Below are positions 5,407 to 16,935 of a stretch of DNA of 64,000 nucleotides, piece after piece. A model generated the notes under the pieces. It was given only the letters and a program-made list of their open reading frames with translations. It was not told the DNA's origin and searched no databases. A program made the position numbers and the translations under genes. The stretch's first letter is position 1; each line of letters starts with the position of its first letter. Origin of the DNA: Halorussus caseinilyticus (GTDB lineage Archaea > Halobacteriota > Halobacteria > Halobacteriales > Haladaptataceae). The stretch lies in NCBI RefSeq assembly GCF_029338395.1, contig NZ_CP119809.1, positions 2,480,001 to 2,544,000 on the forward strand. Reading direction: 5' to 3'.

Positions 5407-5430
5407 CCCTCGCACCCGTCGTGGCGGGTG

Positions 5431-6819
5431 ATGGAAGACGCGGCCCGGACGAACGTCCCGCGCGGGCGATTCGACTTCAAGTACGTGCCCGAGACCGACC
5501 AGTCGTTCGAGAACGCATTGGCGAAAGCCGACGACGGCGAGCGACTCACCGTCGCCGACGGCATCGAACTGCTGACCACAGGCACCGACCGCGAGGGAAT
5601 CGACCTCGCCCGGAAAGAGCGCGTGCTGGAGGCCGCCGACCGCCGACGCGCCGAGGTAGTCGGGGACGCCGTGACCTTCACCGCCAACCTCAACAACAAC
5701 GTCACCACCGCGTGCAACACCGGATGTCTGTTCTGTAACTTCAAGGACACCGCCCAGAACTTCGAGGCGGAAAGCGAGGAGGGTCACGCTGGCTTCACCA
5801 AGACGCCCGCCGAGTCCCGCGAGACCGTCGAAGCGGCCCGCGAGATGGGCATCTACGAGGTCACGTCGGTCAGCGGTCTCCACCCGGCGCTGGCGCTGGA
5901 CGACGAACACCTCGAAATCCTCGAATCGAGCGACCGCGGCGACCTGAACTACAAGTCCCCCGACGCCTACGAGACCGACCCCGGCACCTACGTCGAGCAA
6001 ATCGAGGCGATGAACGTCGGCGGTCTCCACCTCCACTCGATGACGCCCGAGGAGGCCTACCACGCCCGCCGGGGTACCGACTGGTCCTACGAGGAGGTCT
6101 ACGGCCGCCTCGCCGACGCCGGACTCGACAGCGTGCCCGGCACCGCGGCCGAAATCCTCGTGGACGAGGTTCGGTCGGTCATCTGCCCCGGCAAAATCGG
6201 CTCCGACGAGTGGGTCGAAGCGATGGAGGCCGCCGCCGCGGTTGGTCTCGACACGACCGCGACAATCATGTACGGCCACGTCGAGAACGAGGCCCACCGC
6301 GTGATGCACTTGAAGCGCGTCCGGGACCTACAGGACCGCACCGACAACATCACCGAGTTCGTCCCCCTCTCGTTCGTCCACGCGAACACGCCGCTGGCCG
6401 ACCGCGGAATGATAGACGCGGGGGCGAGTACTCACGAGGACGAACTCATGATAGCGGTCTCGCGCCTGTTCCTCGACAACGTGGAGAACGTCCAGTCGTC
6501 GTGGGTCAAGTACGGCGACGAGCAGGGTCTCAAGATGCTGTCGTGCGGCGCGAACGACTTCATGGGCACCATCCTCAGCGAGGAAATCACCAAGCGCGCG
6601 GGCGGCGAGTTCGGCGAGTTCAGGTCCTTTTCGGAGTACGTCGAGATGATAACCGCCATCGGCCGGACGCCCGTCGAGCGCTCGACGGACTACCGCCAGA
6701 CCCGCGAGATAGACCCCGAGAACCCGCCGTTCGGTCCGGAACTCGGCCCCGCGGCGGACGGCACGCCGCTGGTGGCAGACGCCGCCTCGGACGCTCCGGA
6801 GACGGTCGCCGACGACTGA
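5431..6819 (+). CDS. cofH: FO synthase subunit CofH (5-amino-6-(D-ribitylamino)uracil--tyrosine 4-hydroxyphenyl transferase)
   Basis: About 462 aa. A radical SAM core starts after residue 80, with the cluster cysteines C95, C99 and C102 in CNTGCLFC, followed by SGLHPALALDDEHLE, MNVGGLHLHSMTPEEAYHARRGTDWSYEE, the DSVPGTAAEIL motif and a C-terminal barrel ending. CofH joins tyrosine to the ribitylaminouracil, and CofG closes the ring to give FO, the chromophore of F420. ATG 5431 is preferred to a GTG one codon earlier. CofG lies 4 kb away on the other strand. Confidence 0.95.
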   Translation: MEDAARTNVPRGRFDFKYVPETDQSFENALAKADDGERLTVADGIELLTTGTDREGIDLARKERVLEAADRRRAEVVGDAVTFTANLNNNVTTACNTGCLFCNFKDTAQNFEAESEEGHAGFTKTPAESRETVEAAREMGIYEVTSVSGLHPALALDDEHLEILESSDRGDLNYKSPDAYETDPGTYVEQIEAMNVGGLHLHSMTPEEAYHARRGTDWSYEEVYGRLADAGLDSVPGTAAEILVDEVRSVICPGKIGSDEWVEAMEAAAAVGLDTTATIMYGHVENEAHRVMHLKRVRDLQDRTDNITEFVPLSFVHANTPLADRGMIDAGASTHEDELMIAVSRLFLDNVENVQSSWVKYGDEQGLKMLSCGANDFMGTILSEEITKRAGGEFGEFRSFSEYVEMITAIGRTPVERSTDYRQTREIDPENPPFGPELGPAADGTPLVADAASDAPETVADD

Positions 6820-10543: not shown

Positions 10544-11665
10544 TCAGGTCGAGAGAACCGACCGATACCGATTTCCGGCCGCGCCGTCGCTCCCGATGGC
10601 GTCCAGAATCGTCTCCGAGACCCACTGGTCGTCGCCGTCGCCGCCCACCTCTTCGGGAAGGTAGCGCCGATACACCGGCAGTCGCTCGCGCAGGGGGACG
10701 CCCGCCTCGTCCGCGATGTCCTCCAGTTCCCGGAGTGCAGGCCACTCGTACTCGGGGTTGATGTGGTCGTCGGTGACGGGCGAGACGCCGCCCAAGTCGT
10801 CCACGCCGCAGTCGAGCAACTCGCGGGTCGGCGAGAGGTTCGGCGGGACCTGCACCGAGACTTCTTCGGGCAGACACGCACGGGCCATCGCCACGACGCG
10901 GCGCATCGTCTCGACGGAGGGTCGGTCGTACGACGACCGCTCGTTCGGGACGACGTTCTGGACGATGACCTCTTGGACGTGGCCGTATCGCTCGTGCATC
11001 TCGCGGATGGCGAGCAGACTCTCGGCCCGGTCACGCCAGTCCTCGCCGATACCGACGAGGATGCCCGTAGTGAACGGAACCCCCAACTCGCCCGCCGTCC
11101 GGATGGTGGCGAGTCGCTGGCCGGGGTTCTTGACTCGCGGTCCGGCGTGAGCGTCCACGTCGGCGGTAGTTTCGAGCATCACGCCCATCGAGGCGTTCAC
11201 GTCCGCGACCACTTCCATCTGCTCGCGGGTCTGGTCGCCGGGGTTGCTGTGAGGGAGCAGGCCCTCGTCGAGCGCGATGTCGCACACCTCCCGGAGGTAG
11301 GTGTGGATGGAGTCGTGACCCCAATCGGCGAGTTGGTCGTGAATCCGAGCGTATCGGTCGTCGGGGTCGTCGCCGAAGGTGAACAGGGCTTCGGTGCATC
11401 CGGCGTCCGCGCCGGTCCGGAGGATGTCCCTGACCTCCTCGGGCGAGAGCAGGGACGCCTCGCCGGGCGCGTCGAAGTAGGTGCAGTAGGTGCAGGTGTA
11501 CCGGCAGGCGGTCGTCAGCGGGACGAAGACGTTCTTGGCGAAGGTGAGTTCGTCGGCGGAGTCCACGTCGGCGGGTTCGACCCCGAGGAGTCGCCGGACT
11601 TCGGTCTCGTCGATGGTGACGGTTACGTCGTACTCGTCGGCCCCCGGAATGTCGGTACCTGCCAT
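10544..11665 (-). CDS. cofG: 7,8-didemethyl-8-hydroxy-5-deazariboflavin synthase subunit CofG
   Basis: 373 aa radical SAM enzyme. The cluster cysteines are C54, C58 and C61 (CRYTCTYC), followed by TFGDDPDDRY, LLPHSNPGDQ, GVMLETTADVDAHAGPRVKNPGQRL and TGILVGIGEDWRDR, all typical of CofG. It converts the CofH product to FO. cofH is 4 kb away on the other strand, and the broken cofC is on the same strand upstream, so cofC-cofG may once have been neighbours before the ATPase cassette between them. Confidence 0.95.
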   Translation of the reverse strand: MAGTDIPGADEYDVTVTIDETEVRRLLGVEPADVDSADELTFAKNVFVPLTTACRYTCTYCTYFDAPGEASLLSPEEVRDILRTGADAGCTEALFTFGDDPDDRYARIHDQLADWGHDSIHTYLREVCDIALDEGLLPHSNPGDQTREQMEVVADVNASMGVMLETTADVDAHAGPRVKNPGQRLATIRTAGELGVPFTTGILVGIGEDWRDRAESLLAIREMHERYGHVQEVIVQNVVPNERSSYDRPSVETMRRVVAMARACLPEEVSVQVPPNLSPTRELLDCGVDDLGGVSPVTDDHINPEYEWPALRELEDIADEAGVPLRERLPVYRRYLPEEVGGDGDDQWVSETILDAIGSDGAAGNRYRSVLST

Positions 11666-11719: not shown

Positions 11720-12328
11720 TCAGAGGAGGGTTCGTTGGAGCAGTCTGTCGAACGACCCGCCGTCGAGTAACGACGCCAGTTTCTCCGCCTCGTCTTCGGG
11801 GTCGTCCTCGTCCTTGTCGATACCCGCGGCCACTTCCAGATTGTCGCGGAAGGCGAGAACCGTGAATCCGGTTCGGGGGTCGCTACCGCGGTCGTTTTCG
11901 AGCGCGACTTCCTTGGCGACCATCTCGCGGCATCGACAGACTTGCTCCGCGTCGCCGATTCGGAGTCCTGTACCCTGATGGCGCTGTCGAACGCGCTCTC
12001 GGATGTCGTCCACGAAGCCGTCGATTTCAGTAGTGTCGAGGTCCACGAGGACGTACTTCTCTACTGGCTTGTTTGCGAGGTGGCGGACGACGGACGAGAA
12101 TCCGGCCTTCAGATTCGGTTTCCCGTTTTCAGATTTGACCAGCAGGTTGTAGTCGTTCCACCCATCGAGGAAACGCCGAATCTTGTTCGACTCTCGATTG
12201 CGCATCTCGTCTTTCGAGACGTTTTCGATTACGAGCGGGTCGATTCGTGGATTATCGTGATACCTGTCGAAAAACTTTCTCACGAAGCGCACGTCGCGTT
12301 TCCCCTCGCTGAAGACTATCTTCGACAT
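11720..12328 (-). CDS. Toprim-like (DUF3226/DUF4435-type) nuclease candidate
   Basis: 202 aa. The N-terminal strand carries Glu8 in KIVFSEGKRDVRFV and a later strand carries D96 and D98 in KYVLVDLDTTE; Glu followed by a DxD on separate strands is the Toprim signature of OLD-type nucleases and primases. A Cys-rich CRCREM and a long acidic C-terminus follow. It starts five bases after the ATPase gene and is surely co-translated with it. In known systems (OLD, Gabija GajA, PARIS AriA/AriB) such a pair is a DNA- or tRNA-cleaving effector under ATPase control. Family membership is inferred from motifs only, and the protein is shorter than AriB. Confidence 0.6.
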   Translation of the reverse strand: MSKIVFSEGKRDVRFVRKFFDRYHDNPRIDPLVIENVSKDEMRNRESNKIRRFLDGWNDYNLLVKSENGKPNLKAGFSSVVRHLANKPVEKYVLVDLDTTEIDGFVDDIRERVRQRHQGTGLRIGDAEQVCRCREMVAKEVALENDRGSDPRTGFTVLAFRDNLEVAAGIDKDEDDPEDEAEKLASLLDGGSFDRLLQRTLL

Positions 12329-12333
12329 CGGAG

Positions 12334-13617
12334 CTAAATCCCTCGAAGGTCGAGATGCAAGTCCTTGAGGTCGTGTTCGGCAGTCTCGTAGTCCAGCACT
12401 TCCGCCCCGAAGTCGTCCATCTTGACGAGCGAGAACTCGTCTTCGAGGTAGTCGCGCTTCTCGTCGGGCATGTCGGCGAAGAAGTCTTTGATAAAGTCGT
12501 GGTCGTGCGTCGTGATGAAGAACTGGACGTTCTCGTCGCGCGCGAGGTCGATGAGGAAGTGGACGAGTTTGAGGACGTATCCGGGGTGCATGTGGTTCTC
12601 GGGTTCCTCGATGAGGACGATTTGGTTCTCTACGTCGTCGTCCATGAGTTCCCACAGGAGGCCGACTATTGCTTTGAAGCCGTCGCCCATGAAGTCGAAG
12701 GGTATGGGTTCTTTCTCACCGTCTTCGGTCTCGAAAATCAGGGTGTCCAAACTGAAGGATTTCAGGTTGTCCACGATGTCTCTCTCCTGAATGAAGTCAC
12801 CGATGTCGTCTATTTTGACTGATTCTTGATTGTCGTCGGTTCGTTTAATATCATCAGTTGTAGCGGTCGATTTGATGAATGTGGTCAAATTGGTGGGAGT
12901 TGGTCGTTCTACGAATGTATTTCGGGGTGGAAGTCCGAGTTCCACTCTTCTGGAAGAAAATTCGAAGTATCCCCTTGGACCTCGCTGATTATGGTAGAAA
13001 CCTAGATTGTCAATTTTCTCGCTTCCGCGGAACTCGTCTACCACGTCTTCTAAAATATCTCTTATAAGAGTGGTGCTTCTTTTTCCACTCAAAAAGCAGG
13101 GATACTCTCTATCCGCAGTAGAAAGTATCAAAATCTCGTCCCGAAGTCCTTCAGTTGGCTCCCTAACTAGTTTCTCTCTTATTGCATCCACCAACGAGTT
13201 CCGTATATTCTCGTATATTTGCCTCGGAGCATCTGCTTTTTCTTCAGAGGGGACTTCTGACTTCTCGTCAGTAGTGAACTGCGCAAGACTCATCTGAAAT
13301 CCTCCGGTGTTGGAAGCAATCTCAAAAAATAAATTCTCTGCTTCTGATAGCGACGGCTTTCTAATATTGGCTTCAAAACTCGCTGAATCACTTTCACCGG
13401 AAATTTCAGCAGAATCGAATTTCGTATTGATTACTGAATCGAGATTGTCGTCGAACTCTTGAAGATTCACCGGTTCGAAAAGCAAATCCACCGCTTCCAA
13501 AAGAGAAGTCTTCCCAGTATTGTTCCTGCCAGTAATCAAGTTAATGTCGGTAGGCTCGAACTCGACGTACTCCAACCCTTTGAACCCCTCAATCTCGACG
13601 TGTTCGAGTTCCGTCAT
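12334..13617 (-). CDS. OLD-like AAA ATPase (AAA_15/AAA_21 type)
   Basis: 427 aa. Starts MTELEHVEIEGFKGLEYVEF, then Walker A GRNNTGKT (30-37), a long insertion, an ABC-like signature region (FDFMGDGFKAIVGLLW), Walker B IVLIEEPEN (333-341) with HMHPG, and the switch His371 in TTHDHDF. This is the SMC/RecF-like ATPase architecture used in OLD, PARIS and related systems. The nuclease domain that OLD carries at its C-terminus is absent here and seems to be supplied by the next gene. The middle of the gene is visibly richer in A/T than its neighbours, which suggests later acquisition. Confidence 0.8.
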   Translation of the reverse strand: MTELEHVEIEGFKGLEYVEFEPTDINLITGRNNTGKTSLLEAVDLLFEPVNLQEFDDNLDSVINTKFDSAEISGESDSASFEANIRKPSLSEAENLFFEIASNTGGFQMSLAQFTTDEKSEVPSEEKADAPRQIYENIRNSLVDAIREKLVREPTEGLRDEILILSTADREYPCFLSGKRSTTLIRDILEDVVDEFRGSEKIDNLGFYHNQRGPRGYFEFSSRRVELGLPPRNTFVERPTPTNLTTFIKSTATTDDIKRTDDNQESVKIDDIGDFIQERDIVDNLKSFSLDTLIFETEDGEKEPIPFDFMGDGFKAIVGLLWELMDDDVENQIVLIEEPENHMHPGYVLKLVHFLIDLARDENVQFFITTHDHDFIKDFFADMPDEKRDYLEDEFSLVKMDDFGAEVLDYETAEHDLKDLHLDLRGI

Positions 13618-13679
13618 CGGTAGTCGCTCACCTCCAAGTTGCCCGTCATGACATAAAAACCGTCGCCTTCTCCCAATCC

Positions 13680-14382
13680 CTACTCCCGAACCACGCCCAC
13701 CCGACTCTCGTCGCTGGCCAACTCGAATCCGGCCGCGCGCAACCACTCGAACGACGCTCCCGTCGCTCGCGGTTCCACCGCTCGCGCGTCCGAGGCGCTT
13801 CGCGCCTCGCTCCCCCGTGAATCAGCACCTCCGCGAGGTCCGCGCGCTCGTCCACGTCGGTCGCCAGTCGGTGCGAATCCACCACTCGCACCTCGGCACC
13901 CACCTCGCGGGCGGCGGTCAGGTGGTCCAGAAACGACGTGCCGTGGTAGTCCACCCGAAACTCGGGGTGGCGCACGACGAGCGCGTTCGTCCCGCCGCCG
14001 CGTCCCGGCGCGATGGCGACTTCGCCGACGGCCGCCGACTCGTCGCTCCCTCGTCCGTCGTCCCGTTCGCCGCGCTCGAACAATCGTTCGAGCGCGGCGG
14101 GGTCGCCAGCGCGAGGTCGGCCATCACCACCGCGACCGGGCCGTCGGTCCCCGCGAGGACCGCGTTCACGGCCTCGGTCAGCGGTCGGTCGTCCACCGTC
14201 ACCGGCGCGTCGGTCTCAACCGGCGCAGTCGCCAGCACCTCGGGGTCCCGGCCGGTCGCCCGCACCGCGGCCAGCACGTCGGCCAGCATCGCCTCGGCGA
14301 ACGCCGCGCGTTCGTCGGGCGACAGCACGTCGGCTAACCGGGTCTTCGGTTCGGTCGCGGCGTACGGAACGACGACTCGCAT
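13680..14382 (-). pseudogene. cofC: cofC (2-phospho-L-lactate guanylyltransferase) with two frameshifts
   Basis: The first 97 or so residues read MRVVVPYAATEPKTRLADVLS through [16 protein letters not shown], as expected for CofC, the nucleotidyltransferase that activates phospholactate for F420. The frame then breaks at a C-run near 14100. Restoring one C gives [13 protein letters not shown] and on through [25 protein letters not shown] to EVLIHG. A second break at a G-run near 13818, again one base short, is needed to read the expected ending [22 protein letters not shown] and a stop at 13680. Either a real double mutation or two homopolymer sequencing errors. With both repaired the protein would be about 234 aa. 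Confidence 0.8.
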
Positions 14383-14719
14383 CTCTTCGGAAGTCGCTCG
14401 GCCTGCCTTAAGAGGCTACGGAATGACGGTGGTAACCACGGTACGGTCGCTGGTTCAACTTCGAGTCTCGGCCGCTCGCCACGCGACGGCACAGCAACCG
14501 CGGGAACCGGAAGAGAAAACACCGTCTTTCGCAACGAATTATATTGCTAAAGAAATTGTATCTCTTCTTGAGAGCAATACAAAAATGTCCACGCGCCGTG
14601 TTTCTCGGCGTCCGTATTCGTCGGCGGACGGACACAACGTGACCGTCCGCCGGGTTCGCCGCGCCCCGCGCGGCGGACTCCCGAAATCTCCCGAAATCGG
14701 TCCGGAACCGAGTCCGCGT
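14383..14719. other. Intergenic stretch, no gene seen
   Basis: Holds an AT-rich patch around 14530-14590 (with GCTAAAGAAATTG) and, at about 14645-14680, a GC-rich hairpin with GTCCGCCG/CGGCGGAC arms downstream of the surface-protein gene, which may be its terminator. I see no convincing reading frame. Confidence 0.4.
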
Positions 14720-15514
14720 CTAGCGGAGTTTGTCGTAGTCGTCCTGATTCTGCGAGCGATACCAGAGCGCGCCGCCGACGACGACGAGCAGTGCGAGCAG
14801 TCCAGCGCCGCCGTAGAGGAGCATCTGGGTCTGCTCGTTCGACTGCTGGGCCGAATCCGCGCTGTCGGCCGCTTTCCCGGCGAGGTCGCTCGCCAGTCCG
14901 AAGTTCTCGCCGTCGAACGCGGACACGGCGTCCGAGAGCGTACTCTCGGCGTCCGAGACGCCCGCACCGCTGTCTTTCGCGTCGGCGATGGTGTCTTCGG
15001 CGTCCTCGATAGCCGACCGTGCCTCGTCGCTCTCCTCGGTGTAGGGCCGGAACGTCCACGGGTCGGCGATGGTCTCGCTACTCCCGCCCTGCCGGACCTG
15101 ACTCAGTTCGGCGAGCAGGAGGCTCTGGGCCGGGTCGTAGGTGAAGTTCGTCACCTCGGGGACCGTCCCCTCGATTTTCACCTCGACCTCGTAGGCGTCG
15201 CTCTTGTCCAGCGCGTGGTCGAACGACTGACCGTCGTAGGACTTCTGGTCTATCTTGTCGCCGCCTTGGTCGTAGAGTTTGACCGTCCACGTCACGTCCG
15301 TCAGGTGGGTCGTCCCGTTGAGCGTCCACGAGTCGTACTCGCTGAACGGTTTCTCGATGGTGAACGTGGTCGTCACGTCCGACCCGACCTTCGCCTCGCT
15401 GGGCGCGCCGCTCGCCGACGCCGACATCGCCGCGGCGGGACCGACCGCCGAGACGACCAGCGTGGCCGCGAGCAACAGCGTCAGCAGTTTAGAACAACGG
15501 TTCGAGTTCATCAT
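14720..15514 (-). CDS. Secreted, C-terminally anchored surface protein
   Basis: 264 aa. A signal peptide covers about residues 1-29 (SKLLTLLLAATLVVSAVGPAAA), followed by a beta-rich ectodomain (VGSDVTTTFTIEKPFSEY, TVKLYDQGGDKI), a helical acidic stretch (EARSAIEDAEDTIADAKDSG, likely a stalk) and a transmembrane helix (about 235-253, LLYGGAGLLALLVVVGGALWY) with a short cytoplasmic tail. Its start lies inside the end of cetZ1 (26-base overlap), so the two are probably translated together. Function unknown; the context suggests a cell-shape or surface role. Confidence 0.75.
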   Translation of the reverse strand: MMNSNRCSKLLTLLLAATLVVSAVGPAAAMSASASGAPSEAKVGSDVTTTFTIEKPFSEYDSWTLNGTTHLTDVTWTVKLYDQGGDKIDQKSYDGQSFDHALDKSDAYEVEVKIEGTVPEVTNFTYDPAQSLLLAELSQVRQGGSSETIADPWTFRPYTEESDEARSAIEDAEDTIADAKDSGAGVSDAESTLSDAVSAFDGENFGLASDLAGKAADSADSAQQSNEQTQMLLYGGAGLLALLVVVGGALWYRSQNQDDYDKLR

Positions 15515-16667
15515 CGTCGTCCTCCACTAGTTCTTCCAAGTTCTCTTCGCTCTCCTGCTGAATCTCGTCGATGTTGTCCTGTGCCTCGATTGCGACTTCC
15601 TGTAGCTCCTTGATTCGCGGGACGTTGTTGACGCCCGACAGGAGGACGACGCTGGCGACGTACTGGGAATCGACCACCGGGTAGTCGCCACCGCGGACTT
15701 CCATCGAACCGGTCTGCTCTTCGAGCCACTTCCGACCGCGCTCTATTCCCTTCCGGTTGAGGTGCTGAGGCGGGCCGCTCAACACGAGGAGGGCGCGCTC
15801 GGTGCCCTCGATTTCGCAGGGCAGGGTGAGTCGCCCGAGTGCCGCCTTCCGGACGAGGCTGGTGATGCGGTTGGTCGTGTTGGCGCTGTCGGGTTGGTTC
15901 TCGTCGCTCCCGGTGAACCGCGAGAGCAGGCCGTTCGAGGAACTGCTGTTCTCGACTTCCTCGGCGGCGTAGCCGATGGTAGAGACGCCCCCGCCAGCGA
16001 GCGTGTTGATAATCTCGCTGGAGTCCACGACGCTCTCGGCCACTTCGTCGTCGCCGCCGACTTCGCCCGCGCCGAAGAGGATGCCGAACCGTCGGACGAT
16101 TTCCTCGTTGATTTCGGCGTAACCGCTCTCGATGGATTCGCCAGACTGTCGCCACGCGTCGTTGTCGAACACCATGAGGTTGTCAACCTCGCGGACGAAC
16201 GTCTGGAACGACCGCGCGGCGTTCAGCGTGTAGATACCCCCCTCGTCGCTACCGGGCAGGATACCGAGACCGTACACCGGTTCGGTGTAAATTCGTTTGA
16301 GGTGCTTTGCGAGAACCGGGGCACCGCCAGAACCGGTGCCACCACCCATCCCCGCGACGATGAGGAACGCATCGACTTCGTGGACAGGGATGTTGTCGAT
16401 AGCTCCCTGAATCTCGTCGATGTCCTCCTCGGCGATTTCCGCGCCGAGTTCGTTGTCCGCGCCGACTCCGTGTCCCTTTACTCGGGATTGACCGATGAGG
16501 ACTCGATTGTCCTGGGGAACCTCGTCGAGTCCCATCAGGTCGGCCTTCGCGGAGTTAACCGCGACTGCCGACCGGACGATGTCGCTTCCAGTTCGCTGGT
16601 CGTATTCCAGGAACTTGTCCACGATTTTCCCACCGGCCTGCCCGAAACCAATCATTGCGAGCTTCAT
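15489..16667 (-). CDS. cetZ1: Tubulin-like protein CetZ (CetZ1-like)
   Basis: 392 aa. GTP-binding motifs of the tubulin/FtsZ superfamily are present: MIGFGQAGGKIVDKF, the GGGTGSGGAPVLAKHLK signature (glycine-rich loop) and NNVPRIKELQEVAIEAQDNI at the C-terminal end, which then becomes acidic (EELVEDDDDELEPLF). CetZ1 controls cell shape and rod formation for swimming in Haloferax. The start is MKLAMIGFG, as in the family; an upstream extension is not conserved. A second, very similar paralogue is at 59621. Confidence 0.93.
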   Translation of the reverse strand: MKLAMIGFGQAGGKIVDKFLEYDQRTGSDIVRSAVAVNSAKADLMGLDEVPQDNRVLIGQSRVKGHGVGADNELGAEIAEEDIDEIQGAIDNIPVHEVDAFLIVAGMGGGTGSGGAPVLAKHLKRIYTEPVYGLGILPGSDEGGIYTLNAARSFQTFVREVDNLMVFDNDAWRQSGESIESGYAEINEEIVRRFGILFGAGEVGGDDEVAESVVDSSEIINTLAGGGVSTIGYAAEEVENSSSSNGLLSRFTGSDENQPDSANTTNRITSLVRKAALGRLTLPCEIEGTERALLVLSGPPQHLNRKGIERGRKWLEEQTGSMEVRGGDYPVVDSQYVASVVLLSGVNNVPRIKELQEVAIEAQDNIDEIQQESEENLEELVEDDDDELEPLF

Positions 16668-16935
16668 TTTCCGGACCGTACTCCGTTGGGAGAAATACAA
16701 CCACGAAGGGGTGATAATCCTTTTGGTCCGTCCCACGGAATCCGGAAACGGCGCGTTACACCGAATCGAACCACGATAATCGGACGTTTACCGGTCGCGC
16801 GAACCACCACCAGTTCCCGAACATGTCCTTTTAAGTTTATAGCCGCGCAGAGATGTCCACCTGCTGGTAGTCGAACGGCATCGGACACGCGTCCGACGGC
16901 CGTCAGACGAGGGTTTTGCCGACCGCCCGCCGAGA

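What the first reader, a model, noticed from the sequence alone, without database searches (positions are those of the whole stretch)
13680..14382. cofC carries two single-base losses in homopolymers
The CofC protein reads correctly in three pieces. One C is missing at about 14100 and one G at about 13818. If real, F420 synthesis would need another guanylyltransferase, although cofG and cofH are intact. If not real, the assembly has homopolymer errors and other frames should be checked.
Basis: seen in the sequence. Interest (0 to 1): 0.6.

Follow-up and report, generated by a model that had tools for sequence, protein, structure and literature searches.

The report
Broken cofC: probably sequencing errors
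A cofactor-making gene of a salt-loving archaeon looks broken by two missing letters, but the same small faults break other vital genes in this assembly while the gene shows no decay, so the breaks are most likely sequencing errors; the gene also carries a short repeated in-frame insert that many haloarchaea share.

Summary
cofC (window 14382-13680, minus strand) reads in three frames because one base is missing in each of two short G/C runs: a C in the run at 14099-14102 and one base in GGGGGA at 13811-13816. It is the only cofC in the genome (genus Halorussus); the best copy in each of 17 congeners is intact.

The mended protein shows no decay: pN/pS lies inside the genus range, and no residue invariant in the others is changed. 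In about 525 kb of coding sequence compared, at least five other conserved genes carry single-base faults at G/C runs. One is argW, whose essential C-terminal EDWGE is lost; others are a tRNA methyltransferase and TatCt. A sister genome screened the same way showed no convincing case. cofD, cofE, cofG and cofH are intact.

It has 12-53 matches in each of 18 Halorussus genomes and occurs in 24 of 37 genera sampled. In 64 of 94 copies examined it lies inside genes, always in the same one of six frames, coding a SEARRASxSRAxEPRD-like peptide. This resembles Rickettsia palindromic elements.

The parts
14101..14382 (-). cofC piece 1 (MRVVVPYAATEPKTRL...MADLALAT), frame 1
   Evidence: TIGR03552 positions 1-117 matched by ORF 13918-14382; 94 codons aligned with orthologues
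14099..14102 (-). lesion 1: C run one base shorter than in relatives; frame changes here
   Evidence: nucleotide alignment; pairwise with G006
14068..14099 (-). perfect inverted repeat, 14-bp arms, 4-nt loop, abutting lesion 1
   Evidence: arises from ordinary codons ALERLFERG, not part of the dispersed repeat
13817..14098 (-). cofC piece 2 ([10 protein letters not shown]...DLAEVLIHG), frame 3
   Evidence: TIGR03552 positions 118-193 matched by ORF 13646-14083
13811..13816 (-). lesion 2: GGGGGA, one base fewer than in relatives that carry the same insert; frame changes here
   Evidence: G014, G003 read GGGGGAA
13763..13811 (-). copy of the dispersed two-hairpin repeat, in frame with the C-terminal piece ([16 protein letters not shown])
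   Evidence: E 2.7e-12; same place in cofC of four congeners
13680..13811 (-). cofC piece 3 (insert plus [24 protein letters not shown] and stop), frame 2
12334..13617 (-). AAA_15/AAA_21 ATPase inserted between cofC and cofG
   Evidence: absent between cofC and cofG in H. salinisoli
10544..11665 (-). cofG, intact
   Evidence: TIGR03550 444 bits, whole profile
5428..6819 (+). cofH, open frame
15489..16736 (-). CetZ/FtsZ-like gene, the usual haloarchaeal neighbour of cofC
   Evidence: FtsZ profile 91.6 bits; neighbourhood described in PMC9856176

Best explanation
The cell very probably has an intact cofC making one CofC (2-phospho-L-lactate guanylyltransferase). The two missing bases are residual indel errors of the assembly in G/C runs, at places that are hard to read or polish: one beside a perfect 14-bp hairpin, one at the edge of a repeat with many copies in the genome. 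Shown: the two losses, the single gene copy, the absence of decay, and similar faults in other conserved genes. Inferred: that these faults are technical rather than mutations.
For: Mended cofC: mean pN/pS 0.28 against 0.265-0.41 for 17 orthologues; the only apparent private change at 96 columns invariant in the others comes from the codon left out at the first gap. Survey of 1.02 Mb of the chromosome, 525,607 bp of coding sequence covered: further single-base frame breaks with well-kept flanks near C1:2690574 (aldehyde ferredoxin oxidoreductase-like), 2740627 (TrmG10-like tRNA methyltransferase), 2832938 (TatCt linker) and 2900897 (MFS transporter); the methyltransferase and TatCt have no intact second copy. 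argW at C1:2914769 reads G7 where the sister genome reads G6 and so loses EDWGE; that C-terminal Glu is needed for arginine synthesis in Natrinema gari (PMC10433800). All faults are one base at G/C runs. Sister genome G006: 530 kb covered, 7 candidates, none convincing among the four inspected, the other three at gene starts. Detection of planted deletions 108/150. Genome completeness 99.74. cofD, two cofE, cofG, cofH and several luciferase-like genes are open. Long-read assembly errors are mainly homopolymer indels (PMC12007338).
Against: Two faults in one 0.7-kb gene is unexpected if about seven errors fall at random over 525 kb (my estimate: about 3% for any such pair). No reads, no platform information and no second strain could be examined. 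The rate of other faults is low, so a few could be real mutations; some affected genes (MFS transporter, C-terminus of the oxidoreductase) could be true pseudogenes.
Confidence: 0.76

Rival explanations
1. Real and recent loss of CofC. The strain has lost F420 by two frameshifts but keeps cofG and cofH to make FO, which photolyase may use as an antenna.
For: Two lesions in one gene is what a dead gene would show; no second cofC; the importance of F420 in haloarchaea is unsettled and its precursor may serve a photolyase (PMC8305020); another haloarchaeal genome of the family, G023, also has its only cofC split.
Against: No decay of the rest of the gene; intact cofD, cofE and F420-type enzymes; similar one-base faults in unrelated conserved genes of the same assembly; intact best copy in 17/17 congeners.
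Confidence: 0.19
2. The lesions are real but bypassed: ribosomal or transcriptional slippage at the short runs, perhaps helped by the adjacent hairpin, restores some full-length CofC.
For: A perfect 14-bp hairpin abuts lesion 1 and conserved coding sequence continues beyond both lesions.
Against: No slippery heptamer in frame at lesion 1 (sequence); runs of 4-5 are short for slippage; two events would be needed; no relative shares the arrangement.
Confidence: 0.03
3. Lesion 2 reflects real turnover at the edge of the dispersed palindromic insert, while lesion 1 is an error.
For: Lesion 2 lies at the insert's 5' edge and species differ in insert length and presence there.
Against: The insert and the C-terminus stay in their usual common frame, so only the junction base is off; 64 of 64 intragenic copies elsewhere keep the frame on both sides.
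Confidence: 0.05

Closest known systems
False pseudogenes from homopolymer indels in long-read assemblies (e.g. Kastor, PMC12007338)
   Same: Single-base, mostly deletion, faults at short homopolymers that fragment conserved genes without decay.
   Different: Sequencing platform of this genome unknown; the rate here is low (about seven faults found in 525 kb of coding sequence) and all are at G/C runs.
CofC, 2-phospho-L-lactate guanylyltransferase (TIGR03552 / PF01983)
   Same: The pieces match; one copy; near cofG and a CetZ-like gene as in other haloarchaea.
   Different: As assembled, split in three frames; carries an in-frame insert of about 16 residues near the C-terminus.
Rickettsia palindromic elements (RPE; reviewed in PMC10969869)
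   Same: For the repeat at 13763-13811: short palindromic DNA inserted in frame within genes of unrelated function, coding a conserved peptide.
   Different: About 48 bp instead of about 150 bp, GC-rich, two hairpins, in haloarchaea; one reading frame only in the 64 intragenic copies examined. Homology to RPEs not tested.

Membership tests
CofC (TIGR03552/PF01983) | full-length profile match above the cut-off | tested here: not met
   two fragments of 74.5 and 79.4 bits against a cut-off of 105; PF01983 positions 1-100 and 116-189 as separate hits
CofC (TIGR03552/PF01983) | residues conserved in the genus kept across all pieces | tested here: met
   no private change at columns invariant in 17 orthologues other than the codon removed at the first gap
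CofC (TIGR03552/PF01983) | guanylyltransferase activity | not testable with these tools
   needs an assay
True pseudogene | relaxed selection or further lesions | tested here: not met
   pN/pS within the genus range, no further lesion
True pseudogene | lesions confirmed by independent reads | not testable with these tools
   no reads and no second strain
Assembly indel error | similar faults in unrelated conserved genes of the same assembly | tested here: met
   five further genes against none convincing in the sister genome
RPE-like in-frame palindromic element (repeat at 13763-13811) | dispersed copies with conserved hairpin pairing | tested here: met
   12-53 matches in each of 18 genomes; hairpin 1: 407/416 cells Watson-Crick in 52 distinct sequences, A-T 37 / C-G 13 at one pair
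RPE-like in-frame palindromic element (repeat at 13763-13811) | in-frame insertion in genes, with empty sites in orthologues | tested here: met
   64/94 intragenic, all in one frame; empty sites in CarB, PurC, CofH and a helicase
RPE-like in-frame palindromic element (repeat at 13763-13811) | mobility | tested here: inconclusive
   presence/absence among species, but no insertion caught between strains and no mobilising enzyme known

The most novel reading that the evidence does not exclude
What is new in this interval is not the lesions but the insert at 13763-13811: a copy of a short two-hairpin repeat, found in most haloarchaeal genomes sampled, that sits inside conserved genes (cofC, cofH, purC, carB and others) always in one of six reading frames, adding a 16-17 residue SEARRAS-like peptide. 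It would be an archaeal counterpart of Rickettsia palindromic elements; lesion 2 lies on its edge. I found no description of it in the papers I could search.
Probability: 0.55. Interest if true: 0.65.

Novelty: not a real feature. Interest (0 to 1): 0.28.

Why it matters
If the losses were taken at face value, this Halorussus would be reported as unable to make F420. The check shows instead that this assembly carries one-base faults in a scatter of conserved genes, including argW and TatCt, so gene-loss claims from it need read support. The by-product is a family of in-frame palindromic inserts in haloarchaeal proteins, which could explain many odd short insertions in alignments and offers a tractable case of how repetitive DNA is tolerated inside essential genes.

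Tried and rejected
Rejected frameshift candidates in G000: window about 2010 (purS/purQ gene boundary), 2395 and 17967 (gene start, antisense ORF), 15250 and 16535 (faults of the reference G014); C1:2118942, 2756875, 2975517 (gene starts or intergenic). A split profile match in cofH suggested an insert, but the frame is open and the extra residues are no copy of the repeat. Hairpins as the general cause of the faults: only some of the six sites examined have strong stems. Searches for the genome's own paper and sequencing method gave nothing useful. Rfam: no match above gathering in 13600-14500. A programmed frameshift was considered and set aside for lack of a slippery heptamer.

Full report
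WHAT WAS CHECKED. The window is C1:2480001-2544000 of a 4.39-Mb, 5-contig genome. Its congeners include H. salinisoli (G006), H. aquaticus (G003) and other Halorussus species. A nucleotide alignment with 18 Halorussus homologues places the first loss in the C run at 14099-14102 and the second in GGGGGA at 13811-13816. Two homologues with the same downstream insert read GGGGGAA and others differ, so the second missing base may be A or G. The CofC profile finds only this one locus in the genome, as two fragments. The best copy in each of 17 congeners is intact.

IS THE GENE DECAYING? The mended gene was compared with 17 orthologues over 199 codons. Mean pN/pS is 0.28 (others 0.265-0.41). The single apparent private change at 96 otherwise invariant columns comes from the incomplete codon removed at the first gap. 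So the lesions are either very recent or not real.

IS THE ASSEMBLY SOUND? I took 1.02 Mb of the chromosome around the window and 1.0 Mb of H. salinisoli contig 1, plus smaller pieces of four other congeners, and searched for collinear tblastn pieces in different frames. About 525 kb of coding sequence was covered. A trial with 150 planted deletions detected 108. Besides cofC, four genes have one-base losses with well-conserved flanks: an aldehyde ferredoxin oxidoreductase-like gene, a TrmG10-like tRNA methyltransferase, TatCt (in the linker between the two TatC domains) and an MFS transporter. The oxidoreductase and transporter names are my reading of the sister proteins; the methyltransferase and TatC were confirmed by profile. 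The reverse comparison exposed a fifth: argW has G7 where H. salinisoli has G6, which replaces the C-terminal EDWGE. In Natrinema gari the last Glu of that motif is required for arginine synthesis (PMC10433800). The sister genome, with 530 kb covered, gave seven candidates. Of the four I inspected, three are gene starts or intergenic and one is the argW fault of G000; the other three break within the first 40 or so residues of the query and were not inspected. The reference G014 also carries faults, for example in its CetZ-like gene.

VERDICT ON THE LESIONS. Most likely residual homopolymer indels (0.76). The point against is their clustering in one gene. It could be explained by local difficulty: the first site abuts a perfect 14-bp hairpin (0.7% of random 90-bp stretches hold a stem of 14 bp or more) and the second abuts a repeat with 18 matches in this genome. 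Real loss remains possible (0.19). It would fit a strain that keeps FO but not F420, since the importance of F420 in haloarchaea is unsettled (PMC8305020). cofD, two cofE genes, cofG, cofH and several luciferase-like genes remain, which suggests that the pathway is in use.

WHAT ELSE IS IN THE INTERVAL. Positions 13763-13811 are one copy of a dispersed repeat. A covariance model built from eight copies finds 12-53 matches in each of 18 Halorussus genomes and matches in 56 of 79 genomes, 24 of 37 genera, sampled from the order. I read the context of 94 top-ranked copies with a codon-usage score on both flanks. 64 lie inside genes, and all 64 are in the same one of six frames (AGC GAG GCG ...; peptides such as SEARRASESRAAEPRD or SEAQSASDASGETAS). 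The other 30 are intergenic, at gene ends or unclear, and include the broken cofC itself. Orthologues without the insert show clean empty sites, for example in CarB, PurC, CofH and a helicase (gene names are my reading of the conserved motifs). The first hairpin is kept through compensatory changes. In cofC the insert is present in five of the genus sequences, counting the window, and absent in several others. This works like Rickettsia palindromic elements (PMC10969869); mobility and homology to them were not shown. Literature searches found no description in haloarchaea, but the library is partial.

LIMITS. No reads, no strain name and no sequencing method were available. The 94 copies were among the best-ranked matches to a model built from intragenic copies, so weaker and intergenic copies may be under-represented.

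Noticed in passing
window 13763-13811 and loci L262-L356: Dispersed two-hairpin repeat of haloarchaea, inserted inside conserved genes in one fixed reading frame (64 of 94 copies examined), coding a SEARRAS-like peptide, with clean empty sites in orthologues; resembles Rickettsia palindromic elements.
   Followed up: yes
G000 C1:2914769 (in locus L252): argW reads G7 where H. salinisoli reads G6, running into another frame and losing the essential EDWGE C-terminus: probable assembly error.
   Followed up: yes
G000 C1:2690574, 2740627, 2832938, 2900897: Other single-base frame breaks at G/C runs, in an oxidoreductase, a tRNA methyltransferase, TatCt and an MFS transporter.
   Followed up: partly
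window 11720-13617: AAA_15/AAA_21 ATPase plus a 206-aa partner of unknown family between cofC and cofG; similar DNA follows cofC in three congeners but not in H. salinisoli. Possible OLD-like defence pair.
   Followed up: no
L039 (G023): The only cofC of another haloarchaeal genome of the same family is also split by a frame change, in the loop after LATPDALERLF.
   Followed up: partly
L040 (G026): A second cofC-like gene is interrupted by about 380 bp whose ends look like an IS605-type palindrome-associated element.
   Followed up: no
L129/L130 (G014): The draft genome G014 has several one-base frame breaks of its own, including in its CetZ-like gene.
   Followed up: partly
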